Below, in pieces: positions 20,613 to 60,097 of a stretch of 64,000 bases of DNA. Below the pieces are notes generated by a model. The model had not been told where the DNA came from, searched no databases, and worked only from the letters and a program-made list of their open reading frames with translations. The stretch is from Deltaproteobacteria bacterium (GTDB lineage Bacteria; Desulfobacterota; DSM-4660; Desulfatiglandales; Desulfatiglandaceae): the NCBI GenBank assembly GCA_019308785.1, contig JAFDHL010000001.1:1-64000 (forward strand). Reading direction: 5' to 3'. Both the position numbers and the translations under genes were made by a program. The first letter of the stretch is position 1; each line of letters starts with the position of its first letter.

Positions 20613-20846
20613 TTAATGTAATAGTTCAGGGTTTAATTTTGCAACCTTTTCCCAGTCAATCGAGTCGTTGTTTGGTTTTGATTTTGTTATTTTTTTATTA
20701 ACTGGAGACGGGCACCATTCTGGTATTCTTTCATATGGATCCACAGTAATGGCTCGCAGTATTGCATTAAAACCACACGACCCCCGGTAATGGGTTTCGA
20801 TCCAGTCTTGACAATTACAACATTTTTTAATCGGATATGGCCACAT
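20613..20846 (-). CDS. Small cysteine-containing protein
   Basis: 77 residues from an ATG overlapping the helicase stop (TGATG). KKCCNCQDWIE and SCGFNAIL plus WCPSP provide Cys ligands, likely for zinc. The C-terminus is helical. No function recognised. Confidence 0.65.
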   Translation of the reverse strand: MWPYPIKKCCNCQDWIETHYRGSCGFNAILRAITVDPYERIPEWCPSPVNKKITKSKPNNDSIDWEKVAKLNPELLH

Positions 20847-34919: not shown

Positions 34920-37900
34920 TTAATACGTCCTCCTTAACCGTTCACGTCTGGATGGCCTAAAGGCACGCCTCAGATTATTCTTGATAGACTTGTGCGTGAT
35001 AACCGGGAAGGGTTTTCCGGATCGCTGAACTAAGACGTTATAAACTCGAATTTCCTCTAAAATATCCATATAACGAGACTTTGATCGCTTCTCTTTGGGT
35101 CGATTGTAAAAGGCTTTAATCCTGGCATAAATGTCATGCCGTAAATCAGCCATGTTTTGTTCGACCTTGCGTTCTTTCCACTGGCGTTCACGAATCTTAG
35201 CTATCCTGGCAGGATTAAAAGTAAGACCTCTTATTATGGTCTCCATCCCATCCAATTTAACCACCTCACGTCCATAAAACAGTGGCGCATTGGAGCTTGT
35301 TGTCACACCCTGAGTAGATTCACGGTAAGCTTTGATCCCAGACCCGATAAAATTGGGTGATATGCGCTCAATTCCCTTTGCAAAATCACCGCGCAGGATC
35401 GACTTCCCACCGACCACTACGTCAGATACCAGAGACCCAGGTGCTCCCATCAAATCTTTCAAGGTGGTGGGGACATCAAAGATTGAAATATCCAAAGATC
35501 CCTTCAACGATACACCATGACCACCCAAACCAAAAGCACCCAACCGGACGATCTGTTCCGTTGTTTCGCCCCAGTTGGCTTCCAGCCATTCATACATAGC
35601 TTCTTCCGGTTCATCCGGAGCACCCGGTAGCAATCCAAAGGCTTCGATCACAGCCTTGATTAATAAAGATGATGTTGCCCCACCAATAACAGCTGGGGCT
35701 AATGCCATATAGAGTAAAGCAGTCCTATCTTTTGTTTTAAAACCTAAATCATACATCGTCTGCAAATAGTTATGGCTGAATGTTTTAAATACATAAAACA
35801 TTTGCGCCGTCCGTGCCAACGGATTGGCACCCCTGGCATAATGTGGTCGGTTTGCCTTAGAATAAACCCCATGAGCCATATCAGAAGCCTTTTTGGAATT
35901 TGCCATCCATTCTTTGTGCAACACTTTCTTTTGTTCGGCACCGGCGCTATCCCATTTTTTTTGGTTTATTTTACGTTGTCCGATATAAGACCCTGCTATA
36001 GTAGCCATACGATTTATCTGCTCAGAAACACCAAAACCCATCATTAAAACCTCAAGCATGGTATCATAACCATTGCCGACCTTAGATTTAAGTAACGATA
36101 AGGCTTCTTTGTTGTACTGGGCAGCATGCCACCCGCTATCCTCGATTTCTTCAAACAGATCATTCATCCATCCTGGGATGTTTGGATCTCTATCAGATCT
36201 TCCTGCACGATAGTATTCCAGGTATCCCTTCATGGCATCAACTAAAAATCCAGGGGTCTTTCGCATAGGGATGTTGGCAAAAGCTCGCATTGTTGCTGGT
36301 ACAGCCATACCAAGGTTGGTAAGGTTGACCGCTACAGCTGCTGGCCGACCGGCCAGAAATTTCAACACAGCCAGGCCCTTGACCGTACCAATTATTCTGT
36401 CCACAGCTTCGTCGTTTCGACCCATATCTTCCATATAGGTTAAAGCATCGTGAAAAATGTTTCGCTGTTTAACAGGATCAATACGCCGATTTTTAACAAA
36501 TTCCAGATAATCCTTATAGGTGGTATCCAGACCCGCCTTGGTATGTTCGGCTTGATATTCCTGCCATGAAATATCGGTACCGGTCATGTGTCGCAGCATG
36601 TCCAGCATCATTTTCTTTTTAGCTTCACCGGCAGCTACGCCCCTCACATATTTAGCCATGCGTTGTACTGAATCTTCTTCATAACCCTTCCACACCCCAA
36701 CACCGACAGCATCATTTCGCATAATCATATGCGTTCTAACACCACGACCCTTAAAGAGATTAGCCACACCTTCAGCCAGCTGCTTACCCATCTCCAACTG
36801 TGCCTTTTCCAGCTCTGCCATAACGTCGGCGGCTACGCCCTTCTTCATCTCACCAGAGACCTGCTCCAGCGCCTTGTTCATTATCTCCTGAAACGCCACG
36901 ACCTGTCCGGCTATTTTAAAAATATCTTCCGGCATCTTATTAATCTTCTCAATATCAACAATATAATTATCATACTTTTTCCTGCTGGCTTCTTCAGCAG
37001 CGAAAAGCTCTGACTCAAAATGCTTAAGGATTGGATGGAGTTTGTTCTCATAACCCTTCTTGGGTTTTGCATACATGCTGAAACGTCCGGGCTTGCGGAT
37101 TCGTGGCATAAAGTATCCACGCATATTACCCATTTTAGCCAGTGCTACCTTCAGGTCTACTTCCACCCGTGCGCCATCTACCCAGGTGGCAACACTGGGA
37201 AGACTCATTCCCTTAGCAGCGTATCGTTTAGTTAGATCGTTGATCGCTCCACGCAAAATGTTAAAAACATTATGAGACATTTCTCTGGTGCCCTGGACCC
37301 AATCCTGAGCCAATTCAGAGTATCCCAGCTCGGCCAATTTGGCTACTTCCAGCCGTGTCGCTTCAGCCCAACCATCATCATAACTATTGGCAGTACCAAC
37401 AACCTTTCCGTCCGGATCTTTTATCTCGAAGGTCTTGCCCACTGATTCCTCGATGCCCTCTTTCATCTTTACCGTATAGCCATATTTATTCATATCGTTG
37501 TCGTCCAGGTACTTATTGATGGCTCGATATTCTTTTTTGTTTGTTTTTTTCAGCTTTTTCCCGATTTGTAGCCTGGATTTTTTGTTAGAATCTTTTTCTA
37601 TAAAGTTCAGCCCTTTGAAATAATTGTCTGAACGATTAGTTCCGTCCTCAACCATGGCTCCGGCAGCTGGCACCTTACCGAAATAATGAATAGGCGTAAA
37701 CAACAGGCGTTCCCATGCGGTAGTATCTTCAAGTTCGCCAATTCCTATCTCTCTCTTTTTAAGCATCCACCGACCGATCTTGCCCCAACTCGTCATGGCA
37801 TAATCACGCAGGGATCTACTCACATTTTCAGCAGCTGCGCTGTTGCCATGCTCTCGCATAAATTCTTCGTCCTGGGGAGTGGCTGTGGTATACTGTTCAA

Positions 37901-40900
37901 CAGCCTCGATATCAACAGCACTTTCGTCAAAGACCGTATAGTTAAAATGCGGCGAATCTTTAATACCGGATAGAGTGCCGGACGGAAATTTGATACCATC
38001 TATACCTGCTCTTAAAAGGAACAGGGAAGCTTCTTTGTCTCCACCCAAAGCAGTAGATATTTCTTCATAAGCATTTTGCCCAACTCCAAGGTTTGTATAA
38101 TCATAACTATCTAAATCTTTATCGAACCAATGTTTTAATCTACCAAATGTTTTCATTCTATATTGAGCTATATCCTTTTTTTCAGATTGATTTATAATTT
38201 TTCCCAAGATCTCTTTCGACAAAGCTTTGTCCCAATCCAACCAATCATATTCGCTGGGATCCTTACCCTTATGTAGGGTAACTTTATAAACCGCCTTGGT
38301 TTTTGGCCGCTTCATTGTCAGCTGACTGATAGAATCGGGACGGATAGCCCTTAGATAATCAATAGAATCCTGCCCGTCCTGACGATCCTTGCCCTCAGCG
38401 CTCTGACGGTCGAGTTCGTAGCCTGCAATAAGATTATCAACAACATCCTGGATGGCTGCTACCACACCCGCCTCGCCGGTATTATGGTAGGCTGCGTGCA
38501 TAGCATAGTCTTCAATCATCAAATCTTCAACCAGCGTAGCTTTGGTAATAGCCAGTGTGTTTGCGTGACTGTCATCACGCGCCTTCTTCATCATTTCCGT
38601 TTTAAACATAGTCGGGCTGTAACTGGTTGGTTGACGACTTTCCCAAATTGCAACCGTTCCGCCAGCTGCTTTCCAGGAAAGGTCTATCCATTCATCCGCA
38701 CCTAAGCGATCAGCATAGTCTTTGGCAATGCTCTTTTCGTCAGTAAAATACAGACCCCACCCAAAGGCTTGTGCCCCTTCTCCAGATCCAATAAACCTGG
38801 TGCGAAAACGCTTAAAGAAAGAAGGGGATCCATGATAAGCAGTTGTCTGATATTGCGGAGCCAAAAACTTTCGGGCAAACGGTTTCTGTTTCGGACCCTG
38901 ATAAATCTTGCCGGTCTCAATATCCCTGACAATGCTCTGGGGAGTAAGCTTAAATATACCCACGAACCCATTAATCAGGTCTTTGATCTTTTGTATGATC
39001 TTCTCAATAATCCCTGTCTGTTTAGCTCGATTATTAATGGACCAGGAAATATAATTTGCCCTGTCTTCAGCGCCGCCCACATCTTTAATGTTTCTTGATT
39101 CCCACATGTTGTTGGCATGTAGTTCCTGGATGTGATCTCGCAGGATGTCTGATTCTTTAGATGTAATAAAGCCTACATCTTCCAGCCAGTGGTACGACTC
39201 GTGAGCTAAAACCCAGTTGTCAGCCAGATCTTTATGTAATTCAATCTTGCCGTCAGCATATTTTCCTATGGCGGTTTCACCTTTTACAGGAACCCGACCC
39301 ATGTTCACATAAAAGTTGGCGTTATTAACATCCACCGAATCTACCGACTTGATTATTAGCTGCTGTCCATTAGGCGTGGTTACAGCTACAGATCCGTCAG
39401 CTTTTTTAATCACGTTAGTGCCCTTAAATAAGCGCTTGATATCGTCCAAGGTGACACCCTGGTCACGCATATAGCGCTTAGCGTAGGCTTCTTTAGCTTG
39501 ACGTGTGGCCATATATTGCTCAATCGGTCCGGAAATCCGTACCGGCATTTCATTATAAAATACCTGACGGATGATTGATTCATTTTTAATCGGTGCCGTT
39601 TGGTCTCGATACTGGTCAGCCAACTTGCTCATACCGTTCTTCTCGCCGGCAAAAGCAGCCATAAAATCACTGGCGGTTGCTAAAGTAGTCTCGGTTTCCA
39701 TGAGCATCATCTGAAGATCAGTATCTGACTCTGCGGCTGCCTGCTTAGATAGGTTGCTGAGCTTATCAGAGGCCGACTTTAAGGCTTTCTTGATAGAGGG
39801 GTACTCTATACCCAGAATCCCGAGTTGCGTCCCAAGATCGCGTTGTCTTGTAATGTCAAACCCGGTTTGTCGAAGGGCTTTAATCATCTGGGGAGAGTCT
39901 ATTTTACTAACCAGATCAGCAACATCCACAGTAGAAACACCCTTCTTGCCAACCTGACCATAATACACGCCATCAATCTTAACCAATGCGGCACGCTCAA
40001 CTTCAGGCAAGCCTTCCGGATTTTGTGTTTTATAAAGTAAGAAATCCTGGCGCAATCTATCTTTAATCATTCGGTCGAAGCGCCGTTTATCCAGCTTGGG
40101 ATCCGCCTGCTTCAAAGCATCAAACAGTTCACCGGTAGAAACCAGACCACCACGCTCAAAATTTGGATTAAGAGACACTGCAACTTCCGGAAGTTTTACC
40201 GTCAGTGCATCACCCCAGGCTTTATGGTACAAGTCCTGAGTTTCAATCCATGTTTCGGCAACATCTTTAGGTATCTCTTTTTTGGTATCTTCATGAAACT
40301 GGATGTAGCCCTTAATGGTATGGTAACGATCTTGGATATATTTGCGCCACACCCTATCGGCGACTTCCAGCTTTTTGCCTACCGGATTAACACCAAGGAA
40401 ACTGGCAAAGAGCTGAAGGTCTGCCAGCTTATATTTATTATCCATTTCCAGTACGGGCCGATCTGTAGAGGCAAAACTGTCCAAACTATCTGCCACATTC
40501 AGATTGTTTATCACCCGTTCAAGCAACTCAGCCTTTGTGCCGGTTTCACTTGTTGAAACCAGTCTGGCCATACCGCGCAGCTCGTTAACGGTAAACTGTT
40601 CCGGTTTCATTGTAGAAATGTCCAGATCACCCGAAAGCACTTTGTATGGTGTAGATCCTTTGGGGATACCCCAGTATTGATATTCAATACCATTAGTGAG
40701 TATCCGGAGTGCATCCGTGTGGGCTTCTCTGGTTACTGCTGCTTCGGCCCCTGTAAAATCTGCACGGTCAAATGCGCCGTCTCTTTTGCCAGCTTCGATA
40801 ATCTCTTGTGGAGTGGGGAGTTGATCGCTGCCCCTGCCTCCCTCACGTTCTGCCGGACTAACTCGTCCAGGGCTGCGTCCAACCACTCGTTGGTTGAATA

Positions 40901-43328
40901 ACCTAAGCTGCCTTGGGAGTCCTTTAGCGCGGCTGGGGTAATAGAGTTTGATGTCATTAGGTGTATCTCCTGTAGGTTCGTTGATTAATGTTTGGGCATC
41001 GAACAACTTGCCCTGCCTCATTGGTAAGGGCTTATATTCGGTGAGGATCGTTTCAACTGGGACCATGATTTCTTTCACGATCTCTTTGATTTTTTCCTTC
41101 TCGACCACACTTTCACGGGTCAACTCTTTGTCCGGTACCTGCAAGACAGCTTCCGCAATTCTTAAAGTCTGGGGAAACAGGTGGGCAGTTTTTTTGTGCA
41201 TTGCTTCACGGGCAACAGCAAACTTTTCGTCGTGTGCGCCTTGGAAAGCATGGGTAAATTCGTGATCGATCAAACCTTTAAGATATGTGGCATAGTGTAG
41301 CGGAGACTTGGCAGCGTCTTTATCCAGAGATAACGGATTCATACCCATCTCTCCCAAGCCAGCATTATACTCACCCTCAACAGCTCCACCATCTATCACC
41401 ACAGATAGCATCGGATAAAATTTTTCAAGTTTACCGCCAGCTGCTCCGGCATACATCCTGGCCACCGTTTCAAAGGCTAATATATGTTTGGCATGAAACA
41501 TCGACCCACCCTTGTAACCTTTAACCCCCGTGTCAACCTTTTGATTCAGTTGTTCTATGGGTGTGTAAGGAATGGTCTGGTTCAGATATGGTCGGCGCAG
41601 CTGCTCCTCGATAGTGAGTTTTTCAATTGGCTTCTGTGATTCGTTCCAAATACCAGTAACGGTTTTTATCAGGTCGTTGTAACCTTTATCCGTTTTGGTT
41701 TTTTCGATAGTTTTCTTCCACTCGCCTCGATCTTTTAGGTTCTGCCAGGTAAATTCCACTGTAGTCCGTTTAGCCGACAGCGGATCCACAGCAAATTTAG
41801 CAACAATCTTTTCAGCCAACTGCTTGCCGTCCCACTTCAACTCCATGCGTGAATCGGTCAGTGGATAATAGTTTCCCCCAGGAGTTTGGCTGGTAGCAAC
41901 ATCAATTATCAGCGCACCAGGGAAACCTTCATTATAAATATTAGTAATGCCCTGAGTAAGCTTTGCTCCAGTCTGTTTGTCCACCAGGCGGATTATCATC
42001 TTTTGGTTATACCCGGATGGAGCCTTGGGATAGTATTTCATCGAAAGTTCTGACTGATGATCGCCCTTATTTACAACATCTGTAAATTCTTTAAACTTCT
42101 TCCCACCAAACGGATTCTTAATCTTAGCATTGTTTAAAGAAACGGAAACATTCTTGGGCAACTCGGTGGTCTCCACATAACGCTTGGAGTCGTTATCAAT
42201 AATTTGACTTTCGGCCTCTACGCGAATGGACGTGCCCTGCCTTGGCTTAGACAGTGTACCAACCTGGTCAGCATTTTGTGCCCGGACCCCATCGTGTTGA
42301 TTGTCTCTGGTTTCAAGCACCCAGGTGGATGACTCGTGTGGCCCCAGAATAACAGCCTTGGCAATACCGAACCCACCAAATCGCCCAACCTTATCTTTGC
42401 CAGTACCGTGCAGGGCCAGAAACTTATCTCTAATATCAGTGTCCGACATACCGACACCGTTATCAATAATTTCAAAACTGTTGTGGTAATAATCTTTACC
42501 GGCCTTGGCTATTCTTTTGTCATCAAGCTTACGACCCCGTACAGGATAATCTTCATCAGAAGATTCGTGCCCTGAAGACAGATATGTTCGGATATCAATC
42601 GTTCCCTTTTTGATTTCGCCGGTTTCCAAACTTTCCAGCACCGCATCCAATGAATTTTGTAAACCTTCGCGCACGCTAACGTTTCCCAAATTAGACGTGT
42701 AAGGATACTTGCTTTTAGCTTCATTGTTCCAGGCTCTGGCCACATTAACACCATAGCCAGCCGACACTTTTTCTATGCTGTAACTGACACCAAACTGACC
42801 AGCTGGATCCGGATTACCCATCAGAACCATACGGGTATGATTGGCTCCAATCAGGTTCTCCTGGATTCCCTTAATCGCACCCTCCACCTTGCGTTTGTAC
42901 TTTGGATCCTTGGCATACTTTTTGGTCCGACGTGCTGCAATAATGCCACCCTCAACAGGAATAGGATAGGTGCCATCGTAAACGTCACTTTTGGCAAAGG
43001 TCTTGGAATCCCAAAACATTTTCTGTAATTCGGTGATCCTGGCTTTTAGTTTGGGCAAATTGTTCCGGACAAATTCAAAGTTAAACCACCGGCCAGGCGT
43101 GGTATCGATCTTCAAGATCTGATCTTTCATCTGGCCATGCAGCTGATCAATGATGCTGTCATATTCTTTGTCCAGCGTGTCCAGCACGTCCTGAACCGCC
43201 TGGATCTCAGCTTCACCTTTGGCCATGTCCATATCTTTATAGTCGTCAGTCAGATCTCTCAAGCGCTTTGCTGTTCCAGGATCAAAACGCTTACCCATTT
43301 TTTTAAGACAATATGCAAGTGTTGCCAT
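34920..43328 (-). CDS. Giant polyvalent protein: GHKL ATPase, two zincin motifs, SAP-like motifs, ADP-ribosyltransferase
   Basis: 2802 residues. In order: GHKL/HSP90-like ATPase with LQNSLDA (223-229), DNGVGM (289-294) and GRFGGFGIAKA (315-325); metallopeptidase motif HEFTH (689-693); SAP-like segments near 905-945 and 968-1000; second HExxH, HESYH (1376-1380); ADP-ribosyltransferase from ~1495 with AYHGS, GWGLYF (1523-1528) and FDES (1800-1803), an H-Y-E type set. The remaining ~970 residues are helical, with PLARTAQMFYVF. Long phage polyvalent proteins are thought to be packaged and injected to modify host targets. Catalysis is inferred from motifs only. Confidence 0.88.
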   Translation of the reverse strand: MATLAYCLKKMGKRFDPGTAKRLRDLTDDYKDMDMAKGEAEIQAVQDVLDTLDKEYDSIIDQLHGQMKDQILKIDTTPGRWFNFEFVRNNLPKLKARITELQKMFWDSKTFAKSDVYDGTYPIPVEGGIIAARRTKKYAKDPKYKRKVEGAIKGIQENLIGANHTRMVLMGNPDPAGQFGVSYSIEKVSAGYGVNVARAWNNEAKSKYPYTSNLGNVSVREGLQNSLDAVLESLETGEIKKGTIDIRTYLSSGHESSDEDYPVRGRKLDDKRIAKAGKDYYHNSFEIIDNGVGMSDTDIRDKFLALHGTGKDKVGRFGGFGIAKAVILGPHESSTWVLETRDNQHDGVRAQNADQVGTLSKPRQGTSIRVEAESQIIDNDSKRYVETTELPKNVSVSLNNAKIKNPFGGKKFKEFTDVVNKGDHQSELSMKYYPKAPSGYNQKMIIRLVDKQTGAKLTQGITNIYNEGFPGALIIDVATSQTPGGNYYPLTDSRMELKWDGKQLAEKIVAKFAVDPLSAKRTTVEFTWQNLKDRGEWKKTIEKTKTDKGYNDLIKTVTGIWNESQKPIEKLTIEEQLRRPYLNQTIPYTPIEQLNQKVDTGVKGYKGGSMFHAKHILAFETVARMYAGAAGGKLEKFYPMLSVVIDGGAVEGEYNAGLGEMGMNPLSLDKDAAKSPLHYATYLKGLIDHEFTHAFQGAHDEKFAVAREAMHKKTAHLFPQTLRIAEAVLQVPDKELTRESVVEKEKIKEIVKEIMVPVETILTEYKPLPMRQGKLFDAQTLINEPTGDTPNDIKLYYPSRAKGLPRQLRLFNQRVVGRSPGRVSPAEREGGRGSDQLPTPQEIIEAGKRDGAFDRADFTGAEAAVTREAHTDALRILTNGIEYQYWGIPKGSTPYKVLSGDLDISTMKPEQFTVNELRGMARLVSTSETGTKAELLERVINNLNVADSLDSFASTDRPVLEMDNKYKLADLQLFASFLGVNPVGKKLEVADRVWRKYIQDRYHTIKGYIQFHEDTKKEIPKDVAETWIETQDLYHKAWGDALTVKLPEVAVSLNPNFERGGLVSTGELFDALKQADPKLDKRRFDRMIKDRLRQDFLLYKTQNPEGLPEVERAALVKIDGVYYGQVGKKGVSTVDVADLVSKIDSPQMIKALRQTGFDITRQRDLGTQLGILGIEYPSIKKALKSASDKLSNLSKQAAAESDTDLQMMLMETETTLATASDFMAAFAGEKNGMSKLADQYRDQTAPIKNESIIRQVFYNEMPVRISGPIEQYMATRQAKEAYAKRYMRDQGVTLDDIKRLFKGTNVIKKADGSVAVTTPNGQQLIIKSVDSVDVNNANFYVNMGRVPVKGETAIGKYADGKIELHKDLADNWVLAHESYHWLEDVGFITSKESDILRDHIQELHANNMWESRNIKDVGGAEDRANYISWSINNRAKQTGIIEKIIQKIKDLINGFVGIFKLTPQSIVRDIETGKIYQGPKQKPFARKFLAPQYQTTAYHGSPSFFKRFRTRFIGSGEGAQAFGWGLYFTDEKSIAKDYADRLGADEWIDLSWKAAGGTVAIWESRQPTSYSPTMFKTEMMKKARDDSHANTLAITKATLVEDLMIEDYAMHAAYHNTGEAGVVAAIQDVVDNLIAGYELDRQSAEGKDRQDGQDSIDYLRAIRPDSISQLTMKRPKTKAVYKVTLHKGKDPSEYDWLDWDKALSKEILGKIINQSEKKDIAQYRMKTFGRLKHWFDKDLDSYDYTNLGVGQNAYEEISTALGGDKEASLFLLRAGIDGIKFPSGTLSGIKDSPHFNYTVFDESAVDIEAVEQYTTATPQDEEFMREHGNSAAAENVSRSLRDYAMTSWGKIGRWMLKKREIGIGELEDTTAWERLLFTPIHYFGKVPAAGAMVEDGTNRSDNYFKGLNFIEKDSNKKSRLQIGKKLKKTNKKEYRAINKYLDDNDMNKYGYTVKMKEGIEESVGKTFEIKDPDGKVVGTANSYDDGWAEATRLEVAKLAELGYSELAQDWVQGTREMSHNVFNILRGAINDLTKRYAAKGMSLPSVATWVDGARVEVDLKVALAKMGNMRGYFMPRIRKPGRFSMYAKPKKGYENKLHPILKHFESELFAAEEASRKKYDNYIVDIEKINKMPEDIFKIAGQVVAFQEIMNKALEQVSGEMKKGVAADVMAELEKAQLEMGKQLAEGVANLFKGRGVRTHMIMRNDAVGVGVWKGYEEDSVQRMAKYVRGVAAGEAKKKMMLDMLRHMTGTDISWQEYQAEHTKAGLDTTYKDYLEFVKNRRIDPVKQRNIFHDALTYMEDMGRNDEAVDRIIGTVKGLAVLKFLAGRPAAVAVNLTNLGMAVPATMRAFANIPMRKTPGFLVDAMKGYLEYYRAGRSDRDPNIPGWMNDLFEEIEDSGWHAAQYNKEALSLLKSKVGNGYDTMLEVLMMGFGVSEQINRMATIAGSYIGQRKINQKKWDSAGAEQKKVLHKEWMANSKKASDMAHGVYSKANRPHYARGANPLARTAQMFYVFKTFSHNYLQTMYDLGFKTKDRTALLYMALAPAVIGGATSSLLIKAVIEAFGLLPGAPDEPEEAMYEWLEANWGETTEQIVRLGAFGLGGHGVSLKGSLDISIFDVPTTLKDLMGAPGSLVSDVVVGGKSILRGDFAKGIERISPNFIGSGIKAYRESTQGVTTSSNAPLFYGREVVKLDGMETIIRGLTFNPARIAKIRERQWKERKVEQNMADLRHDIYARIKAFYNRPKEKRSKSRYMDILEEIRVYNVLVQRSGKPFPVITHKSIKNNLRRAFRPSRRERLRRTY

Positions 43329-49909: not shown

Positions 49910-50244
49910 TATTTAATCCTCTTTAGGGTTGCATTTTTAATCAAATCTTTTGCGTCCCTGCTGGTGACAGTAACCTCCCATTCCATAGGTGGCTCCACTT
50001 CTGGATAAGGTGGTATGGTAATCACCGGTGCCTCCATTGTAACAACCGGCATTGGAGTGCTGCGGGACAAATGCAAAATAACACTATCTACCAGCTTTCC
50101 GGTTTGTTCGTTTGCCTCAGATAGCTGGCTGACCGCGTTCTGTACTGTTATAATTAATGGATCTATAGCCTTTTTTGTTTTCTTGGCAGCTTTGGGTTGA
50201 ACCGCACCAGATTCTTTCCCATTATCTTTTAAAAAGAGTTTCAT
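49909..50244 (-). CDS. Hypothetical protein after the GGDEF virion protein
   Basis: 111 residues from the ATG overlapping the stop of the 1338-residue gene (ATGA). Basic N-terminus (KAAKKTKKAIDPL), Pro-rich middle (PVITIPPYPEVEPPMEWE). Unknown. Translational coupling suggests similar dosage to the large protein. Confidence 0.6.
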   Translation of the reverse strand: MKLFLKDNGKESGAVQPKAAKKTKKAIDPLIITVQNAVSQLSEANEQTGKLVDSVILHLSRSTPMPVVTMEAPVITIPPYPEVEPPMEWEVTVTSRDAKDLIKNATLKRIK

Positions 50245-53200
50245 GTTTTCAGGCACTCCATTAACGAATAAAATTCGTTGACATTTTCTTCCATATCAGA
50301 GAAAGCTTCCCGCGCTGGCTCCTCTGTTTCGGTCATCTCTCCAGTCTCAGGATCCATATATCGCACCGTAGCCGTTTCGTCCATGGGCATAAATTCCATA
50401 TTCTCACGAACAAATTTAGCTTTGCGCGATTTAACCGTAGGGGCCTCCTCTGGCGACGGAAGGGTCTCAGCCAGAACCACATCAGGGGTTACAAGTTTGG
50501 GCGGTGGTGCTGGCAACTGAGGGCGCACAGGAGCCTTTTTGGGGGTTGGCACAACCTTGAGCTTTACAGGTTTGACAGCTTCTCCTCTTTTCGAGGCTAC
50601 CGCAGGGATTATTTCAGCTTCAACAGCCAAAGGTACTGGTGCAACTCCAGCCTCGGTCGCTGGCACCACCCCCAACTGCTCATTGGGCAGGTACTCTTGA
50701 GCTTGCTGGAGCGCACCAGAACTTACGGCAAAGGCCAACGTACTGGGTGACATCCCGATATCTTCAGCCTCATAGGCTAATTCTTCCAAAATGAAATTCC
50801 AGGCATTTGTATCAGGTAGGGCCGGGCTTTTAGACAAACGATGAACCTGAGCCATAGTCCAAACAACAGCGTCTTCAACAGTGTCTTCAGGTGTCCACTG
50901 AGGGTTGACTCCAGTCAACCCGACATCAACAACCTGTTCATCTATTGAGACAGGTTTGGCTTGGCCAAGACTCCTGCCCACTTGTTCATTCTCTCTGGCT
51001 TGGGAAGCCAGAAGGCCCTCGCCTTTTTGACTCCACCCGACTGGGAGATAATTGACTTCAACTCTTGTCCCAGGGATCCTTGCTCTGGTGGGTTTCTCTT
51101 TACCTTCCTCAACGATGGTTGCGTATTCCGCTGGGAGTCCATCTTTGATTTTTTCGGCAGCTGATATCGCATTAGATACTGTACCTCCCGTGGCTGACGT
51201 AAAAGCCAGTCCATTAAGTTGATAATGTATGTTGTCGTCTTTTCCTAAGAAATCAAAAATTATTTGAGATGCTGAATCTTTAACAGCAAGACGTAAAGTT
51301 TCAAGTTCGTCCCTGCTGACAGAATCCCTGTCAATTCCGCTGACTCCGTATTCGTCACCACCCATACGGTACAGCTTAACCCTATCGGTAATTCCAGTGG
51401 TTTCAGCTGCTTCAGTCATAGCCTGGCCCATCAGAGCCAATGCCTGATCACCCATGGCATGTCCACCGACAACCCTTTCGCCGGTCGGCAGCATACCTTC
51501 CTTGGTCATGTCGTTATAATATTTAAGCCCATCCACATCGATAGATACAAAAGGAACGTCCGCACCAAATTCTTCTTTATGCAACTCCAGAGCGTTTCTG
51601 TTTAATAATCCGGTAAGAACGTCTACGGTGGCAAACTTTCTGGTAAATTCCAGAGCCTCAGTTCTTTCAGCCGGAGTCATCTTGTCAATGTCGGCTGTCA
51701 TTTGCCAGTTTTCACGACGCTCAAGACCGCTACGATTGTCTTCTTCAACCGGCACTTCCGTTTGACGACGATCATCCCCTTCTCGAATCGCATCCGGATT
51801 TTCGAAAAACTCCGCCAGCTCAGGAAGCTTATTGGCAAAATCTTCTTCCATTTGGGCATTGGAATAAACATTCGTTAATTGATGCAACGGCTCAATATCT
51901 TCAATACCTGGCAGCGTCCTGGGTGCGTCTGTAATCCCTTGCGGGCCACCAATATCATACATAGTCTGCCAGTAGTTGTTACGTTTAACACCCACAACAT
52001 TAAGTTCGTCTGAAGGTGGAATCTGGATCCGGTCGGTTAACGAATCTAAAACCATGTTGCCGGCTCCATCGTCTTCCGATACCACAGTATATTTATCCCA
52101 GCTGTATCCATCACCCTCAATCGCTGCCTGATCACCCAGCTCCAAAGAATCAGCCTGGACAGCAGTCCCAAGGATCTCATATCCATCTGATTCCAGTTGG
52201 GCAATCTCGCCACCCAGAAACAACTCGGGATCCGACGCTTTCATAGCCTGGGCAATTCCCATGATATGGTCAGATATAGCTAACTGACGTGCGGTTAATA
52301 GTTTGCCGGTGTCCAGCTTATCGGTCAGGTCGAAAAAATCTTTTCGGTTAAGGCCGTATTTAAACTCCTCTTTCTTTTCCTGCATCTCGCGCACGGGAAT
52401 CTTCTTGTCCGGTTCCATAACCGTCTTGCCGCTTTTATCTTTTTTAATTCGTGAATCCCGATACCTGATAGTAAACGGTTCTTTAAACCATCCAGGATAA
52501 CTGGATCCATATCCGTGCGCCATACCTTCTGCAAGATTTAGATTTCCAGCTTCATCTATAAAGGTTACACCCTTCGGTTCGGCAGATCCAAGTTGTTCGG
52601 CCATCATGCTATAGGCAGCCCGCAAATCCGGTGGAATCTGGCTGCGATCAACAAAGTAAAAATCAGACAAGGTTCCCAGCAAATTAGCCCGCCGGTCATA
52701 TTCTTCACGGGTTAAACCAATTGGCTCTATACCACTGAAAGCAGGACGGTCAGGGATACCGTTGCCCCTAATGATACCGATCTGTTCCATTGCTCCTTCG
52801 TATTGATCTTGCGTTTGGACCAATCCCAGATCCTGGAGTATGCGCTCTTTTTGGATGTCGTCTAAGTTGGGCTGGCGTGTAAAAACGTCGTTGCCGACTA
52901 TGCGAAGCGTTTTTGCAAATTCATCAGCAGCTTCCAGCGCTCGCTCTTGCCGGTTTTCAATTTCAACAGGATTATCCGGCATAGCAGCATTTATCTCAGC
53001 AAACCGTTCTCGGAAATTGGACTTCAAAAAAACCTGCTGTTGTTCCGGGGTCATCATATCCAGATGGGCTTGAGTCACTGAAGACGCCTTTCTGTTTGGC
53101 ACACGTCTGGAAATAATATCGTTATCAGAAAAAGGTACAAAGTCACCTTCGTCTGCTGCCTCCATAGCCGGACCTTTGCCAAGCTTATCTTCTTCCATTC

Positions 53201-54257
53201 GAAGTCGGTGATATCTTTCGTCTTCCTCTTTCTTCGTAGCCCTATCTGTTTTCCTCTGCTTCCTGGCAGCAACTGCACCAAAGGGAGCAAAAAGCAACGA
53301 CCATGGAGCTGTTAGTGTGCCTTCATACATGCCCTGCTTGGTGGTTTCCCATAAGCTATCTTTAAATAGTTCCGCCCGTTTCCACAGGTCTTTGTCTGGA
53401 TTAGTAGCAAAGATATTAATAAAGGAATCAGGATAGGCTTGTGCCCATTCAGTCAGGAACTCTGTACCAACAACCTGGCCAAGAGATTTAAGACCTTCAA
53501 GCATCGGCATCCGGAGCTTAAACTTATTCATGGCATGTAAAAACGGCACCATCTCTAAAGCGCCCTGGACAACAGCATTGCCAAGTGACCAATAATAAGC
53601 ATCTTCCGGCGGTGTGCCTTCCTGAATCAAACCGTCATAAGTGCCACCCAGGATCTGCATACCGATCATTCCAAAACCAGCCCATGGTCCACCAACTGCT
53701 GAAGCCAGTATCATAGATCCAATCTGGGGCCCTACCGATACCAACCCCTCAAACCAGTTATGGGTTTCCAGCCCTCTGGGATCTGCCTTAAGATATTCAG
53801 ACTCAGCCAGCATAGACAAAGCCATCTCGTGGTTTTCATCCATGGCCATAATGCCGGGACCAAATTTGGTAATTGTATCTGCCAGAGCTTTAACCGCTGT
53901 GCTTTCGGTATAATAAGGAACATACTTTTGTTTCATCCGGTTGAGCCATTCAGAAGTTGATAATGCACCAATGGCCATGTTGCGACCAACATCTTTGGTA
54001 TGGGCACCCAGGATTTCTCCCAGCCGTTGTGTATGTTCAGAACCCCATTCCTTACTGGTAGTCATAATCTCCCAGGGGTTTAACTCAACAGGAGGATGTT
54101 TTTCGGGCCTGTCTTCATCGTAAGAATCAATACCCTTGTAAAATTCCTCTATTGGCCGCGGTGTCTCTCCGGACAACAAACGCGAAAACATCGGGTCGTC
54201 ATCATCTTCGTAAAGACCACTACCGGCATAAGCTAAAATATCGTCGTTAATTCCCAT
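50241..54257 (-). CDS. Large internal virion protein containing a GGDEF domain
   Basis: 1338 residues. Hydrophobic, ejection-protein-like segment at ~173-246 (GPQIGSMILASAVGGPWAG). A GGDEF nucleotidyl cyclase domain at ~870-1030: DVLTGLLNR (879-887), the metal segment SIDVDGLKYYND (905-916), GGHAMGDQAL (931-940) and RMGGDEY (964-970). No RxxD inhibitory site at the usual place before GGDEY. The C-terminal ~200 residues are Pro/Ala-rich. In known enzymes this fold makes c-di-GMP or other cyclic nucleotides. Situated with internal virion genes, it is probably injected. Product unknown. Confidence 0.88.
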   Translation of the reverse strand: MGINDDILAYAGSGLYEDDDDPMFSRLLSGETPRPIEEFYKGIDSYDEDRPEKHPPVELNPWEIMTTSKEWGSEHTQRLGEILGAHTKDVGRNMAIGALSTSEWLNRMKQKYVPYYTESTAVKALADTITKFGPGIMAMDENHEMALSMLAESEYLKADPRGLETHNWFEGLVSVGPQIGSMILASAVGGPWAGFGMIGMQILGGTYDGLIQEGTPPEDAYYWSLGNAVVQGALEMVPFLHAMNKFKLRMPMLEGLKSLGQVVGTEFLTEWAQAYPDSFINIFATNPDKDLWKRAELFKDSLWETTKQGMYEGTLTAPWSLLFAPFGAVAARKQRKTDRATKKEEDERYHRLRMEEDKLGKGPAMEAADEGDFVPFSDNDIISRRVPNRKASSVTQAHLDMMTPEQQQVFLKSNFRERFAEINAAMPDNPVEIENRQERALEAADEFAKTLRIVGNDVFTRQPNLDDIQKERILQDLGLVQTQDQYEGAMEQIGIIRGNGIPDRPAFSGIEPIGLTREEYDRRANLLGTLSDFYFVDRSQIPPDLRAAYSMMAEQLGSAEPKGVTFIDEAGNLNLAEGMAHGYGSSYPGWFKEPFTIRYRDSRIKKDKSGKTVMEPDKKIPVREMQEKKEEFKYGLNRKDFFDLTDKLDTGKLLTARQLAISDHIMGIAQAMKASDPELFLGGEIAQLESDGYEILGTAVQADSLELGDQAAIEGDGYSWDKYTVVSEDDGAGNMVLDSLTDRIQIPPSDELNVVGVKRNNYWQTMYDIGGPQGITDAPRTLPGIEDIEPLHQLTNVYSNAQMEEDFANKLPELAEFFENPDAIREGDDRRQTEVPVEEDNRSGLERRENWQMTADIDKMTPAERTEALEFTRKFATVDVLTGLLNRNALELHKEEFGADVPFVSIDVDGLKYYNDMTKEGMLPTGERVVGGHAMGDQALALMGQAMTEAAETTGITDRVKLYRMGGDEYGVSGIDRDSVSRDELETLRLAVKDSASQIIFDFLGKDDNIHYQLNGLAFTSATGGTVSNAISAAEKIKDGLPAEYATIVEEGKEKPTRARIPGTRVEVNYLPVGWSQKGEGLLASQARENEQVGRSLGQAKPVSIDEQVVDVGLTGVNPQWTPEDTVEDAVVWTMAQVHRLSKSPALPDTNAWNFILEELAYEAEDIGMSPSTLAFAVSSGALQQAQEYLPNEQLGVVPATEAGVAPVPLAVEAEIIPAVASKRGEAVKPVKLKVVPTPKKAPVRPQLPAPPPKLVTPDVVLAETLPSPEEAPTVKSRKAKFVRENMEFMPMDETATVRYMDPETGEMTETEEPAREAFSDMEENVNEFYSLMECLKT

Positions 54258-54270
54258 ATTATTGTCCCGT

Positions 54271-56097
54271 TCAGTAAGGTCTTTCTCTTAGGAACGCTCC
54301 TTCATCTCGTTCCCTTTTTCGATTCATCACCATTTCCTTTTCTTCCTGGGGTAGATTTCTTTGTTCCTCTAAAAATCTTGAAGCGGGTGAAGTTCTGTTA
54401 CTCATTGCTTTACTTATTTCTTCTGGAGTCATTTGGTTTGCAGGTTTATCCTCTAACCTCATAGCGTCGGAGATAGCAGATCTTGGTTTTAAATCTGCAT
54501 CACCAATTGGTTTAAGAAGGTCCGAAGAACTATACGGTGTCATACGCTCTGCTTCCAACAACTGTATAACTTCCTGAGCCTTGCTGTCACCATCTTTAGC
54601 CTTTATTTGAAGCATATTATAATAGGCTTTCAGTGTTGACGGCTCCATTGCGGTCCACGTTTTTTTATTTTTATCCCAACGCATAGGTCGCTTTAGATCT
54701 TTATCGATAGCAAAGCCAAACCCGTCTTTTCCAATATCTTCATCAAAAATGCTGATAACATTTTCTTCACCCCTACCAAAATTCGGTGCCTTTTTGGGAC
54801 TATCAGCCTCGAAGTCCAATTCGCCAGGTGTCAGTTCTGCCTTAAATTCTTTGGCCATATGGTAGGCAAAAGCAGGGCCATACTCCTTTAAACCACTCTG
54901 CATTATCATCCGGAGGTCGGGTCTCTTACCCGCTTGGCCATCAAACATTTCCCTGACTCTGCTGGCAGCGACCTTGGCTGCCTGTGGAGTTAAGAAATTT
55001 TTACCTGTTAGTCCATACCGGTTTGCAAGTTTGTTCGACTTGCTGCCACCGACCATTTCTTGAAAAATCTTCATACCCTTAAGAAAATCTTTCTGGTGTT
55101 GTTCAGCAGTTTTTGGCTTTGGGTTTATCAAATCACGTTCTTCGCCTTTTGCAAGTTCTACTGGGATCCCTTCGGCATATTGCAAGGCAGCTTCCATAGC
55201 AGATTTACCTGCTGTAATATTGTTTTTCATAATCACAGACTGGTCTTTAGCTGATATTTTTTCTCCGGTTGCAAGTCCGGCAGAGCCTCCACCGCCAACT
55301 GGTTGCATCATACTCTGATGGATAGACGTATGGATTTGTCGCAATCGGTTTGACCCTATCGGCACAGGAGTGTTGTCCCCAAATTGCATAGACACTACAC
55401 CACCATCGGTTCGATGTTTAGGGTAGCCCATTTGTCTGGCCTGCTGCTGTTCTTCAGTAACCGGATTGCCCTGGGCATCATACTGTTGCTTCATTTCTCC
55501 CAAGACCGGATTGCCCTGCTCGTCTAATACAGGATTACCCTGGGCATCTTTCAGTGGTTGGTTTTGCCTGGTAACACTCGTCTTGCTATTTGCACCCATG
55601 CCCGGATAGATCCCCCTGAAATGTTTGTCGGCAGCCGTAGCATCTCCACGATAGATCGCATCTGAATAAGCCTTATAGTGACGCATCTGTTCCTGATAAG
55701 CCAGTGCATCTTCATCTACACCTTTACGGATCCTGTCAGATCTTATGCCTTCAACTTCCGCTATAATTCGATCCTGGGTTTTGTAAGCCACAGCATTTTC
55801 TTTTTCAGTTTTAGCCTGATTTAAAATATCGGTTTCTAACTCAGCAACCTCCATAGCCTTGGCGTGGGTTTCTTCCAGCCTTCTTTCTTTGCCTTCAGCT
55901 CTTTCTTCAGTTGCTTTGCGCTTATCTTCATCTGCAAAGCTTTCTATTGCAGAACGGTTGCCACCCGGTATGCCTACCCGTGAACCAGGCGCCCTTCTCA
56001 TTGGTCGCTGGATAAGGGCATTTAATACACCCAGCTTTTGATTTTGCGCTTGAGTTGCTACTCGCTGCCCCGCTAAAAAAGCACTTGATATTGACAT
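54271..56097 (-). CDS. Internal virion protein with DAQGNPV repeats
   Basis: 608 residues, helical and charged, with Gln/Met-rich areas. Around residues 182-220 are repeats built on DAQGNPVLDEQGNPVLG and DAQGNPVTEE. C-terminus is polar. Between two other ejection-type genes, it is likely part of the internal core or DNA-ejection apparatus. No enzymatic signature. Confidence 0.7.
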   Translation of the reverse strand: MSISSAFLAGQRVATQAQNQKLGVLNALIQRPMRRAPGSRVGIPGGNRSAIESFADEDKRKATEERAEGKERRLEETHAKAMEVAELETDILNQAKTEKENAVAYKTQDRIIAEVEGIRSDRIRKGVDEDALAYQEQMRHYKAYSDAIYRGDATAADKHFRGIYPGMGANSKTSVTRQNQPLKDAQGNPVLDEQGNPVLGEMKQQYDAQGNPVTEEQQQARQMGYPKHRTDGGVVSMQFGDNTPVPIGSNRLRQIHTSIHQSMMQPVGGGGSAGLATGEKISAKDQSVIMKNNITAGKSAMEAALQYAEGIPVELAKGEERDLINPKPKTAEQHQKDFLKGMKIFQEMVGGSKSNKLANRYGLTGKNFLTPQAAKVAASRVREMFDGQAGKRPDLRMIMQSGLKEYGPAFAYHMAKEFKAELTPGELDFEADSPKKAPNFGRGEENVISIFDEDIGKDGFGFAIDKDLKRPMRWDKNKKTWTAMEPSTLKAYYNMLQIKAKDGDSKAQEVIQLLEAERMTPYSSSDLLKPIGDADLKPRSAISDAMRLEDKPANQMTPEEISKAMSNRTSPASRFLEEQRNLPQEEKEMVMNRKRERDEGAFLRERPY

Positions 56098-56135: not shown

Positions 56136-57179
56136 TTATGTTAAACTGAAGGGAGAACTTGCCGGTTGCCCATAAGAAGGCATGCTCCCCATAAAGTTCA
56201 TAGCATTTTGCTGTGCGCCATACTGTAAGCCCATCTGCAAGCCACCCATGTCACCATATTGACCGGCAATGTTCGTAGCCATACCACCGGCAATATTTGC
56301 CTGCCCCTGAGCAATTTGTGTCTGCTGACCAGCAAGACCTGCCAACGTAGAAGCGTGCTGACCTCTCATTTGTGCAGATTGCCCCAACATGCTGGCACCA
56401 GCACTCCTAATGCCCATAGCCGATTGCATCATTCTTGTTGGATCTAACAGCTGCATAGCCATAGCTGTTGCTCCAGTCGCTCGCTCTTTTTCACCACGCC
56501 TTGCCTGAGTGGACGCCATTGCTTTTCCGGTAGCTTCCTGCCCGGATATACGGTCCATAGACGCCCGACCCTGCGTGGTGGTTGGATCCATACCCAGTCT
56601 CTGCAATCGTCTGGCATCCGCCTGCCTGGCCAGATTACCCTGGGAGCTAACATCCGCCATAGCCCGACCAGACACACCTTCATAATCAGCCTGGGTCGCT
56701 TGCATCAACTGCTCCCTGGCCACACCCCTGGCTTCCAGTTCTTCTTGAGCTGCCAGTCGGAAGTTTTCGTCAAGACCGGCAAAGTCTTCACGAAATCGTG
56801 TATACTCACCTTCCATCTGTTCAGCCAAATTACCCAAACGGCTTGCAGATTCTCCAGCACTTGTCATCCATTCGTAGGTTCCCTCAAAAGACTGCAAAGC
56901 TTGATTATAAACACCCTTAGACTCCTGAAGCGTTTGGTTCCATTGGTCTAACCATTGATTCATACCGGCATTTGCCCCACCACCCTGGCCTAATCCCAGG
57001 GCTTGCTGTGCCGCCATATATTGCATTTCGCGCATATTAATCTCATGCGATCTGTCTTGACCCATCATTTGTCTTTGTACTTGGAAAAACCGGGAAGTCC
57101 CCATAGTAGGCCCATAATTACCTCCGATTCCACCTGTCCCGGAATAAGCCCCCCTTGATGCCATAGTGTTTGTATACAT
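56136..57179 (-). CDS. Internal virion (ejection) protein, Ala/Gln/Gly/Met-rich
   Basis: 347 residues. Low complexity, with MGTSRFFQVQRQMMGQDRS, NLARQADARRLQRLGMDPTT and GQQTQIAQGQANIAGGMATN. The DARRLQRLGMDP motif recurs in phage ejection proteins I know. Followed by the larger core proteins. It may form part of the trans-envelope channel. Confidence 0.72.
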   Translation of the reverse strand: MYTNTMASRGAYSGTGGIGGNYGPTMGTSRFFQVQRQMMGQDRSHEINMREMQYMAAQQALGLGQGGGANAGMNQWLDQWNQTLQESKGVYNQALQSFEGTYEWMTSAGESASRLGNLAEQMEGEYTRFREDFAGLDENFRLAAQEELEARGVAREQLMQATQADYEGVSGRAMADVSSQGNLARQADARRLQRLGMDPTTTQGRASMDRISGQEATGKAMASTQARRGEKERATGATAMAMQLLDPTRMMQSAMGIRSAGASMLGQSAQMRGQHASTLAGLAGQQTQIAQGQANIAGGMATNIAGQYGDMGGLQMGLQYGAQQNAMNFMGSMPSYGQPASSPFSLT

Positions 57180-57185
57180 TATTAA

Positions 57186-57710
57186 CTACCCCCCTTGCTG
57201 TGATTGCATAAGCTCTACTACTGATGGTGCAAATTCTATACGTTTAACATTTTCCACATTACCCTCCAGCTCAAATTCCCATCGATTAGCTCTAAGCTGG
57301 GCGTCCAGCCTGAAAGGAAGCTGGGTAAATATTTGTGTAGTTGATATTAATGTTCCGTCAGCATAAATTTTGAGTAACAATTCCTTCATCCCCGTATAAG
57401 TTGGCATTGCTCCAGTGTCCCGAATCACAGATCCGGCCAACGGCAACCCACCAACTGGCCAGCCCTGGTGCGGTGCATTTACATATATCACATAGCCACC
57501 GGATAAATACCCCAGATTCTGGTTAATCAAAAGGTTGTAAGCATCCAAAGCTGCGAGATAAGCGTCAAAGTCGCCTTCGTCAAAATAGATTCGACCAAAG
57601 CCAAAGCGCATCCGATCTTCAAGGTTATACAGCTTTGTCTTCCAGTTGAAGGTTCCGAAGGGCTGGGTGTCGTCACCTTCCCATTCATATATTTCTGTTA
57701 TATAGGCCAT
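57186..57710 (-). CDS. Tail-associated structural protein
   Basis: 174 residues, MAYITEIYEWEGDDTQPFGT, aromatic and beta-rich (WKTKLYNLEDRMRFGFGRI, SGGYVIYVNAPHQGW). TAATG overlap with the upstream gene. Likely a tail or adaptor component by position. Confidence 0.65.
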   Translation of the reverse strand: MAYITEIYEWEGDDTQPFGTFNWKTKLYNLEDRMRFGFGRIYFDEGDFDAYLAALDAYNLLINQNLGYLSGGYVIYVNAPHQGWPVGGLPLAGSVIRDTGAMPTYTGMKELLLKIYADGTLISTTQIFTQLPFRLDAQLRANRWEFELEGNVENVKRIEFAPSVVELMQSQQGG

Positions 57711-58498: not shown

Positions 58499-60097
58499 CT
58501 ATAAGTCTGCAATTAAAAATATATTATCCCCAGATCCGATCTGCACAATCTGATCAGCCCTGTTAGGATAACTGGTTCCGCCCATCTGCAATAAAACCTC
58601 AGCGGTTTGTTTCACAAAATAAAGCGTATCGGTGCGTGGATCTACATGCACAGCCGGAGCATAATTCGTATTAGGTTCAGCGCCTAAAAGCAAGGTTGTA
58701 ATCTTTTTTTGGTCAAAATCTATGACCAGAACGCGACCCTCAAAGTCACCCTGATCATAAAATCCATAGTACCGTCCATTCTGATAGGCCCCTATAAAGG
58801 TATCTGGTTCGTAATCTTCCCATTCGTTTTTAGTAAAAAACCCCTCGGTGGCATTAACAGCTCGGCCTCCCGAAACCAGGACAAGGCCATCACTGGTAGC
58901 ATAAAGAACACCAAACTTATATTCAGCCAAAGACCGTTTGGATATACATGGTTGCGATTCCGGCATTTTGTTTGGCGTCATAGAGTATGGCGTAGTGCCT
59001 GTAACGATATACGGATTTTGATCTGTAGCTACCACCAGGTTGTTCTCCATCACGCCCAGGGACACAATGGAAAATTCCAAAGTAAGCACATATTCTTCCG
59101 GCCATGCGTGCGGCTGGAACGGCTCGGAAAAATAAAGATCCTTTCCGACAAAACCCGCCAATATCCCACCGGGTAATGCCACAATTCCAAGCAGATTGTC
59201 CGGTGGTGGCAACCATCGTGGAGGCGAAAGCCCTGTCTGTAAAACCTCTCCCAATTCAGTATCTTCTTTGCTGTCGGAATAAACCGTAGCTGTCGCTGTA
59301 ATCTGATCTACATACTGATACTGAGCTGCTGTTTCACCCTGATTCAATCTGTAAATAAACTTGGACAATATCGTGTTTTCATAAGCTCTCCAGATAACCG
59401 TATTGTCGGTTGTGTCACCATCTACAACGGTTCCCCAAGCAGGCTCTGGGCCACCTGTTGTGCCAGCCTGAACACATTTATAAACATACCCATTGGGAGT
59501 GCTGGGAATTACAAAATCAGTTAAATCATAACCCTGTCCAGTAAGCCAGGTCATGTCCATATTGGTAAGATCGATCTGGTCTCCCGGTAATGCTCCGACC
59601 ACTACATCAGAAACCGGTGACGGGGCGGACTCCTCACCCCAGGTTGTCATTACAGTCCACGCGTAAACCAGATCTCTGGCATCACCGGAACCCCCACCCA
59701 CATTATTGGTTGTTGGCTTTATCCATGGCTGTGGGCTGGCCATGGAATAAAAATTAATCGGCAGCGCACCGCCACCGGTAGTGGCCTCAGCCTCGTTTGA
59801 TTTCTTGGGAATCCCATCCCCAGTATAATAAAACTTAAAATCAGTATCTCCGGATACCGGCCCTAAAACAACATCCACGTCAGCTGACCACTCCAACCAA
59901 AACTGAGACCGATATAGATAAATCGTTCTAACCAGTACGCCAAGCTTTGCATCGGCATCTTTCAGCTCATTATCCCAGGGCCGTATCTCCCCGGAAACAA
60001 GCTTAACGTTGCTGGCCACCTGCGCTTCATTGGCTTCCAGAAGCTGCCTGGCCCTGACCGGCCTGAGACCACTGAATAATGGGATGCTTATTTTCAT
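58499..60097 (-). CDS. Tail hub or nozzle-like protein
   Basis: 532 residues. Opens MKISIPLFSGLRPVRARQLL followed by EANEAQVASNVKLVSGEIRP, the start of a widespread tail protein family of short-tailed phages. Blade-like repeats (YATSDGLVLVSGGR, RYYGFYDQGDFEGRVLVIDF) suggest a beta-propeller. Probably forms the tail nozzle or hub. Identity inferred. Confidence 0.7.
   Translation of the reverse strand: MKISIPLFSGLRPVRARQLLEANEAQVASNVKLVSGEIRPWDNELKDADAKLGVLVRTIYLYRSQFWLEWSADVDVVLGPVSGDTDFKFYYTGDGIPKKSNEAEATTGGGALPINFYSMASPQPWIKPTTNNVGGGSGDARDLVYAWTVMTTWGEESAPSPVSDVVVGALPGDQIDLTNMDMTWLTGQGYDLTDFVIPSTPNGYVYKCVQAGTTGGPEPAWGTVVDGDTTDNTVIWRAYENTILSKFIYRLNQGETAAQYQYVDQITATATVYSDSKEDTELGEVLQTGLSPPRWLPPPDNLLGIVALPGGILAGFVGKDLYFSEPFQPHAWPEEYVLTLEFSIVSLGVMENNLVVATDQNPYIVTGTTPYSMTPNKMPESQPCISKRSLAEYKFGVLYATSDGLVLVSGGRAVNATEGFFTKNEWEDYEPDTFIGAYQNGRYYGFYDQGDFEGRVLVIDFDQKKITTLLLGAEPNTNYAPAVHVDPRTDTLYFVKQTAEVLLQMGGTSYPNRADQIVQIGSGDNIFLIADL

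What the first reader, a model, noticed from the sequence alone, without database searches (positions are those of the whole stretch)
50241..54257. GGDEF nucleotidyl-cyclase domain inside a probable injected virion protein
Residues ~870-1030 carry DVLTGLLNR, SIDVDGLKYYND, GGHAMGDQAL and RMGGDEY, the full motif order of GGDEF domains, with a ~13-residue insertion between the ND and GH elements. The protein lies among internal virion proteins and has an ejection-type hydrophobic region. If active, the phage could deliver an enzyme making c-di-GMP or another cyclic nucleotide at the start of infection. GGDEF with GGDEY instead of GGDEF and no inhibitory RxxD suggests an unrestrained or altered enzyme.
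Basis: partly seen in the sequence, partly recalled or inferred. Interest (0 to 1): 0.9.

Follow-up and report, generated by a model that had tools for sequence, protein, structure and literature searches.

The report
Cyclase domain in phage ejection protein
A complete bacterial virus genome encodes, in its particle-protein operon, a large protein with an apparently intact signalling-enzyme (diguanylate cyclase) domain that is probably carried in the particle and injected into the host; this type of phage protein was predicted in 2017, but the variant here, with a conserved extra hairpin and no product-inhibition site, has not to my knowledge been described or tested.

Summary
ORF 50241-54257 (minus strand, 1338 aa) contains a GGDEF domain at residues ~865-1060. 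All motifs are present, and every catalytic residue shared by 46 aligned GGDEF domains is kept. AlphaFold2 gives a confident fold whose 50 listed PDB matches are all GGDEF-domain proteins, mostly diguanylate cyclases, with no Cas10 or mCpol. The domain is under strong purifying selection. The contig is a complete ~66.4 kb phage genome, and the gene sits in the virion operon downstream of an internal virion protein gene, where T7 has gp16. It shares its GGDEF and a second domain with giant phage polyvalent proteins that also carry ART, LPD38 or InPase domains. GGDEF-bearing phage polyvalent proteins, presumed injected, were already predicted by Iyer et al. 2017 (PMC5512222). What is new is a phage-only GGDEF clade with a conserved 15-residue hairpin beside the guanine-binding residues, without the RxxD inhibitory site, in a separate gp16-sized protein next to an ART/zincin/GHKL giant protein. 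Best reading: an injected, feedback-free diguanylate cyclase. Virion presence, injection and activity remain inferred. GGDEY instead of GGDEF is an ordinary variation.

The parts
50241..54257 (-). Whole ORF, 1338 aa; candidate ejected polyvalent protein with GGDEF domain
   Evidence: domain sharing; synteny
51078..51665 (-). GGDEF (diguanylate cyclase) domain, residues ~865-1060
51597..51623 (-). DVLTGLLNR motif, residues 879-887
51510..51545 (-). SIDVDGLKYYND, residues 905-916; metal-binding D907, guanine-binding N915
51465..51509 (-). 15-residue spacer between ND and GH (13 more than canonical), predicted beta-hairpin; conserved TK...P...G in L018 and L019
51438..51467 (-). GGHAMGDQAL, residues 931-940; D937 = purine-specificity Asp
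51348..51368 (-). RMGGDEY, residues 964-970, the active-site loop; no RxxD upstream
51144..51146 (-). K1038, invariant lysine of the C-terminal GGDEF helix
51981..52352 (-). Second shared domain, residues ~636-759 (helices plus small beta-barrel), also in giant phage proteins L065 and L066
53277..53810 (-). Glycine-rich hydrophobic N-terminal region, residues ~150-327, shared with the giant protein of archaeal virus vir555
54271..56097 (-). 608-aa ORF just upstream, position of T7 gp15
   Evidence: position only; no sequence match
56136..57179 (-). 347-aa ORF, weak PHROG virion structural protein match, position of T7 gp14
58499..60097 (-). phrog_511 internal virion protein family (E 8e-110); its C-terminal part is matched by 57186-57710
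34920..43328 (-). 2802-aa companion polyvalent protein: GHKL ATPase-like, two HExxH zincin-like motifs, SAP, ART-PolyVal

Best explanation
The protein is an internal (ejection) protein of a tailed phage with a short-tail-type virion module, and it carries a working diguanylate cyclase as one of several effector domains. Shown here: GGDEF fold, all substrate- and metal-binding residues, strong selective constraint, virion-operon position, and shared domains with phage polyvalent proteins. Inferred: it is packaged, passes into the host with the DNA through its hydrophobic N-terminal part, and converts host GTP to c-di-GMP at the start of infection. Lacking the RxxD inhibitory site, it would not be shut off by its product. 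The raised c-di-GMP would push the host towards a sessile, surface-attached state, or would interfere with host signalling that uses cyclic dinucleotides. The companion ART/zincin/GHKL giant protein would act alongside it.
For: GGDEF fold at core pLDDT >90; all 50 listed PDB matches are GGDEF-domain proteins, mostly diguanylate cyclases. Invariant D879, D907, N915, D937, D968, E969 and K1038 shared with 45 other GGDEFs. dN/dS 0.031 over residues 860-985 against 0.118 for the protein. Complete phage genome with 114-bp terminal repeat, with portal, terminase and head-gene matches. Gene order internal virion protein - 347 aa - 608 aa - 1338 aa resembles T7 gp12-gp14-gp15-gp16 and is conserved in an 83% identical relative. 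GGDEF and a second domain shared with L065/L066 proteins that carry ART-PolyVal, LPD38 or InPase. N-terminal region shared with the giant protein of vir555, encoded beside an internal virion protein. RxxD in 0 of 11 phage polyvalent-type GGDEFs against 14 of 24 bacterial ones.
Against: No proteomic or biochemical evidence. A GGDEF domain needs to dimerise to make c-di-GMP; whether a protein present in few copies can do so is unknown. The insertion lies next to the guanine pocket and might alter or block activity. The C-terminal GGDEF helix is divergent (lacks the usual ADxALYxAKxxGRN except for K1038). Sequence comparisons of the 347-aa and 608-aa neighbours with vir555 equivalents found nothing, so the ejectosome assignment rests on position.
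Confidence: 0.55

Rival explanations
1. The GGDEF domain binds GTP or c-di-GMP but does not make it: a sensor or sink that soaks up host nucleotide signals, or ties ejection to the host's state.
For: Many GGDEF domains serve as receptors (established knowledge). The insertion beside the guanine pocket and the divergent C-terminal helix could change catalysis.
Against: Receptor-type GGDEFs usually lose GGDEF-motif residues or rely on the RxxD site; here the motif is intact and RxxD is absent, and the catalytic residues are kept in distant relatives.
Confidence: 0.17
2. The domain is an active cyclase but works inside the producing cell late in infection, not after injection; the protein is a late non-virion or assembly protein.
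For: Standalone GGDEF genes in Yuavirus and Vojvodinavirus phages lie outside the virion module, and Bordetella phage LK3 lysogens show hyperbiofilm (PMC8471281). Virion location here is by gene order only.
Against: The gene is in the virion operon at the gp16 position, has a hydrophobic N-terminal region shared with another phage's giant protein, and shares domains with polyvalent proteins.
Confidence: 0.13
3. The domain makes a different cyclic nucleotide (cGAMP, c-di-AMP or an oligonucleotide), serving as a decoy against host nucleotide-based defence.
For: The conserved insertion sits between the two guanine-contacting residues N915 and D937. Phages and hosts compete over such signals (PMC12657218).
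Against: The Hypr signature (Ser/Thr at the D937 position) is absent, and Asp there drives GTP specificity (PMC6456294). N915 and D937 are invariant in the subfamily. No Cas10/mCpol match.
Confidence: 0.1
4. The domain is a structural remnant with no nucleotide function.
For: Pfam score under the curated cut-off.
Against: Strongest constraint in the protein; catalytic residues kept across deep divergence (27-29% identity).
Confidence: 0.05

Closest known systems
GGDEF-containing polyvalent proteins of (pro)phages (Iyer et al. 2017, PMC5512222; e.g. Acetonema longum prophage protein WP_004096050.1)
   Same: GGDEF in a large multidomain phage protein near virion genes, predicted to be injected; related proteins carry ART, zincin, LPD38 and InPase domains.
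   Different: Here the effector set is split over two genes (GGDEF in a gp16-sized protein, ART/zincin/GHKL in a 2802-aa protein); the GGDEF has a conserved hairpin insertion. The paper says nothing of an insertion or of I-site loss in the passages read.
Giant phage proteins L066 (3250 aa) and L065 (>=2372 aa) from IMG/VR
   Same: Same inserted GGDEF with GGDEY and no RxxD, plus a second shared domain; one clade with support 97/91.
   Different: Single giant proteins with LPD38, ART-PolyVal or InPase; only 27-29% identical in the GGDEF region.
T7 gp16 ejection protein
   Same: Gene position after gp14/gp15-like slots and length (1338 against 1318 aa).
   Different: No sequence homology shown (not tested beyond order and length); no transglycosylase domain detected; GGDEF instead.
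Canonical bacterial diguanylate cyclases (SiaD, DgcB, WspR, PleD)
   Same: Fold and active-site residues.
   Different: 13-residue insertion, no RxxD, phage multidomain context, about 20% identity.
Standalone GGDEF proteins of Yuavirus/Vojvodinavirus, Bacillus phages SP-15 and G
   Same: Phage-encoded GGDEF domain.
   Different: In Yuavirus and Vojvodinavirus, small single-domain genes outside the virion module, without the insertion; the Bacillus phage genes' context was not examined.

Membership tests
GGDEF domain / diguanylate cyclase | GGDEF fold | tested here: met
   AlphaFold2 pLDDT 82, pTM 0.78; all 50 listed PDB matches are GGDEF-domain proteins
GGDEF domain / diguanylate cyclase | GG[DE]EF active-site loop and DxD metal/guanine residues | tested here: met
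   D907, N915, D937, D968, E969, K1038 invariant in 46 sequences; Y in place of F
GGDEF domain / diguanylate cyclase | Pfam PF00990 gathering score | tested here: inconclusive
   19.2 bits against 23.8 in hmmscan; counted over the cut-off in the six-frame search (25.6 with neighbours in the frame)
GGDEF domain / diguanylate cyclase | c-di-GMP synthesis from GTP | not testable with these tools
   needs a biochemical assay
Hypr (cGAMP) GGDEF | Ser/Thr at the purine-specificity position | tested here: not met
   Asp (D937) in all inserted members (criterion from PMC6456294)
mCpol / Cas10 palm | Closest structural matches among Cas10/mCpol; GG[DE][DE]F nearly absent | tested here: not met
   criterion from PMC12657218
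Phage polyvalent protein (Iyer 2017) | Several unrelated effector domains in one polypeptide | tested here: inconclusive
   One recognised enzyme domain plus a shared unknown domain and an N-terminal region; close domain relatives do combine several
Phage polyvalent protein (Iyer 2017) | Encoded among virion genes | tested here: met
Phage polyvalent protein (Iyer 2017) | Packaged in the virion and injected | not testable with these tools
   no proteomics
T7-type ejection protein (gp16) | Sequence homology to gp16 | not tested
   only order and length compared; no Pfam lytic transglycosylase hit

The most novel reading that the evidence does not exclude
A phage-specific subfamily of injected diguanylate cyclases has evolved a hairpin at the guanine pocket and lost product inhibition, so that a few virion-delivered molecules change a host second messenger before any phage gene is expressed, possibly as a decoy or antagonist of cyclic-dinucleotide defence.
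Probability: 0.25. Interest if true: 0.85.

Novelty: new variant of a known kind. Interest (0 to 1): 0.58.

Why it matters
No virion-delivered second-messenger synthase appeared in my literature searches. If the domain is active and injected, it would make a 2017 prediction testable with one purified domain and one virion preparation, and would add nucleotide signalling to the activities that phages inject. The shared absence of the RxxD site in phage polyvalent-type GGDEFs is a simple, testable sign of selection for unrestrained output.

Tried and rejected
Cas10/mCpol: rejected by structure search and motif. Hypr/cGAMP: rejected by Asp at the specificity position. Host-derived recent acquisition: no match to the inserted subfamily in 296 sampled other genomes of the phylum, no full-protein match in 196 relatives, domain GC close to the rest of the gene. 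The first scan of genome contigs found no relative; the second, with L018/L019, returned GGDEF proteins at 24-41% identity, taken as ordinary bacterial cyclases and not checked one by one for the insertion. H1 and H3 'phage' hits look like bacterial GGDEF proteins in unannotated fecal contigs, not phage proteins. c-di-GMP riboswitch in the window: no Rfam match. Fold of residues 540-862: low confidence (pLDDT 55), no usable PDB match. Neighbours against vir555 equivalents: no BLAST similarity. The MAG to which the contig is binned has 2 other GGDEF and 5 PilZ matches, but that it is the host is not shown.

Full report
Observation. The ORF at 50241-54257 lies on the minus strand and encodes 1338 aa. 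Pfam GGDEF matches residues 876-972 at E 0.001, below its curated cut-off; NCBIfam DgcJ matches at 1e-5. A generous estimate puts the chance of the four-motif pattern in this protein at about 1e-16.

Fold and active site. In an alignment of 46 GGDEF domains from viral contigs and bacterial genomes, D879, D907, N915, G932, H933, G936, D937, G967, D968, E969 and K1038 are invariant, this protein included. AlphaFold2 with that alignment gives pLDDT 82 and pTM 0.78, with most core blocks above 90; the extra residues form a beta-hairpin. The 50 best PDB matches are all GGDEF-domain proteins, most of them diguanylate cyclases (SiaD, DgcB, WspR, PleD and others), with no Cas10 or mCpol. By the established roles of these residues, metal and guanine binding are intact. 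Asp at the specificity position (D937) points to GTP and c-di-GMP, not to cGAMP (criterion from PMC6456294). GGDE[F/Y] is a natural variation in the same paper, so the tyrosine is unremarkable.

Selection. Against an 83% identical relative (L003), dN/dS is 0.031 over residues 860-985 and 0.118 over the whole protein. This is the signature of a working domain, not a remnant.

The insertion. A pattern scan of IMG/VR found the same 15-residue ND-GH spacer, with a similar TK...P...GG sequence, in two other phage giant proteins, L018/L066 and L019/L065. These form one supported clade with the window's domain (97/91), with L067 beside it at weaker support. The subfamily was not found in 296 sampled other genomes of the phylum. 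The RxxD product-inhibition site is absent from all 11 phage polyvalent-type GGDEFs and present in 14 of 24 bacterial ones (Fisher p 0.0009). The rows are related by descent, so this p-value overstates the evidence; also, many active bacterial cyclases lack RxxD.

The phage. The contig has 66,499 bases with a 114-base terminal direct repeat, so it is a complete genome of about 66.4 kb. PHROG matches give a portal (6292-8481), large terminase (8484-9962, weak), major head/protease (1702-2568, weak) and DnaB helicase (20846-22174). The virion operon runs on the minus strand: phrog_511 internal virion protein (58499-60097), 57710-58489, 57186-57710, then ORFs of 347, 608 and 1338 aa. T7 has gp12, then gp13, gp14 (196 aa), gp15 (747) and gp16 (1318). 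The order is conserved in the 83% relative. Direct comparisons with vir555 neighbours found no similarity, so the ejection-protein assignment is positional.

Domain sharing. The GGDEF region matches L065 (E 2e-22) and L066/L018 (E 4e-20), and residues ~568-759 match the same two proteins in a separate place. L018 carries LPD38 and ART-PolyVal; L019 carries InPase and ART-PolyVal. InPase would remove the pyrophosphate made by a cyclase, which is a plausible partnership (inference; Iyer et al. propose clearing of PPi in general). Residues ~150-327 match the giant protein of vir555, a virus of Methanomicrobiales, where that gene lies just downstream of an internal virion protein gene. The window's own 2802-aa ORF (34920-43328) has ART-PolyVal, SAP, GHKL ATPase-like and two HExxH motifs (the Pfam scores are below the curated cut-offs) and shares its ART region with L018 and vir555.

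Prior knowledge. Iyer et al. 2017 (PMC5512222) described polyvalent proteins, presumed to be injected with the DNA, and listed GGDEF among their rarer domains, suggesting interference with host nucleotide signalling. The finding is therefore a new variant of a known kind that, as far as I found, has not been tested experimentally. Searches for papers joining GGDEF with internal virion proteins, or for 'phage-encoded diguanylate cyclase', returned none; the library is limited to open-licence papers.

Mechanism. Best supported: the protein is packaged, ejected with the DNA, and makes c-di-GMP early without feedback control. Fold, residues, selection and gene context are shown; packaging, injection and activity are inferred. 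Main rivals are a non-catalytic nucleotide-binding domain and a cyclase acting late in the producing cell.

Noticed in passing
window 34920-43328, minus strand: 2802-aa ORF with GHKL ATPase-like region (~280-371), two HExxH zincin-like motifs (689, 1376), SAP and ART-PolyVal: a second polyvalent protein of the same phage.
   Followed up: partly
L019:3-4868 (minus) / L065:7196-14311: InPase domain lies just before the inserted GGDEF in one polypeptide; a pyrophosphatase could pull the cyclase reaction forward.
   Followed up: partly
L017, L021, L029, L032, L048, L060: A second family of GGDEF domains in viral contigs, several in large ORFs ('DPM.PGLGNK' type, no insertion, no RxxD where checked), distinct from the inserted clade.
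   Followed up: partly
L067:7703-17182: 3159-aa phage protein with GGDEF (HISGDEF) and a histidine-glutamate peptidase-like stretch (LQHEIIAHKG); the arginine-rich linker before its GGDEF resembles the one in the window protein.
   Followed up: no
window 57186-57710 and 58499-60097: The phrog_511 family appears split over two ORFs, with 57710-58489 between them.
   Followed up: no
window 2642-3316, minus strand: GIY-YIG type homing endonuclease match within the head-gene region.
   Followed up: no
window 51714-51773 (residues ~829-848 of the ORF): Arginine-rich linker (DRRQTE...RSGLERRE) just before the GGDEF domain; could be a processing site for a companion peptidase.
   Followed up: no
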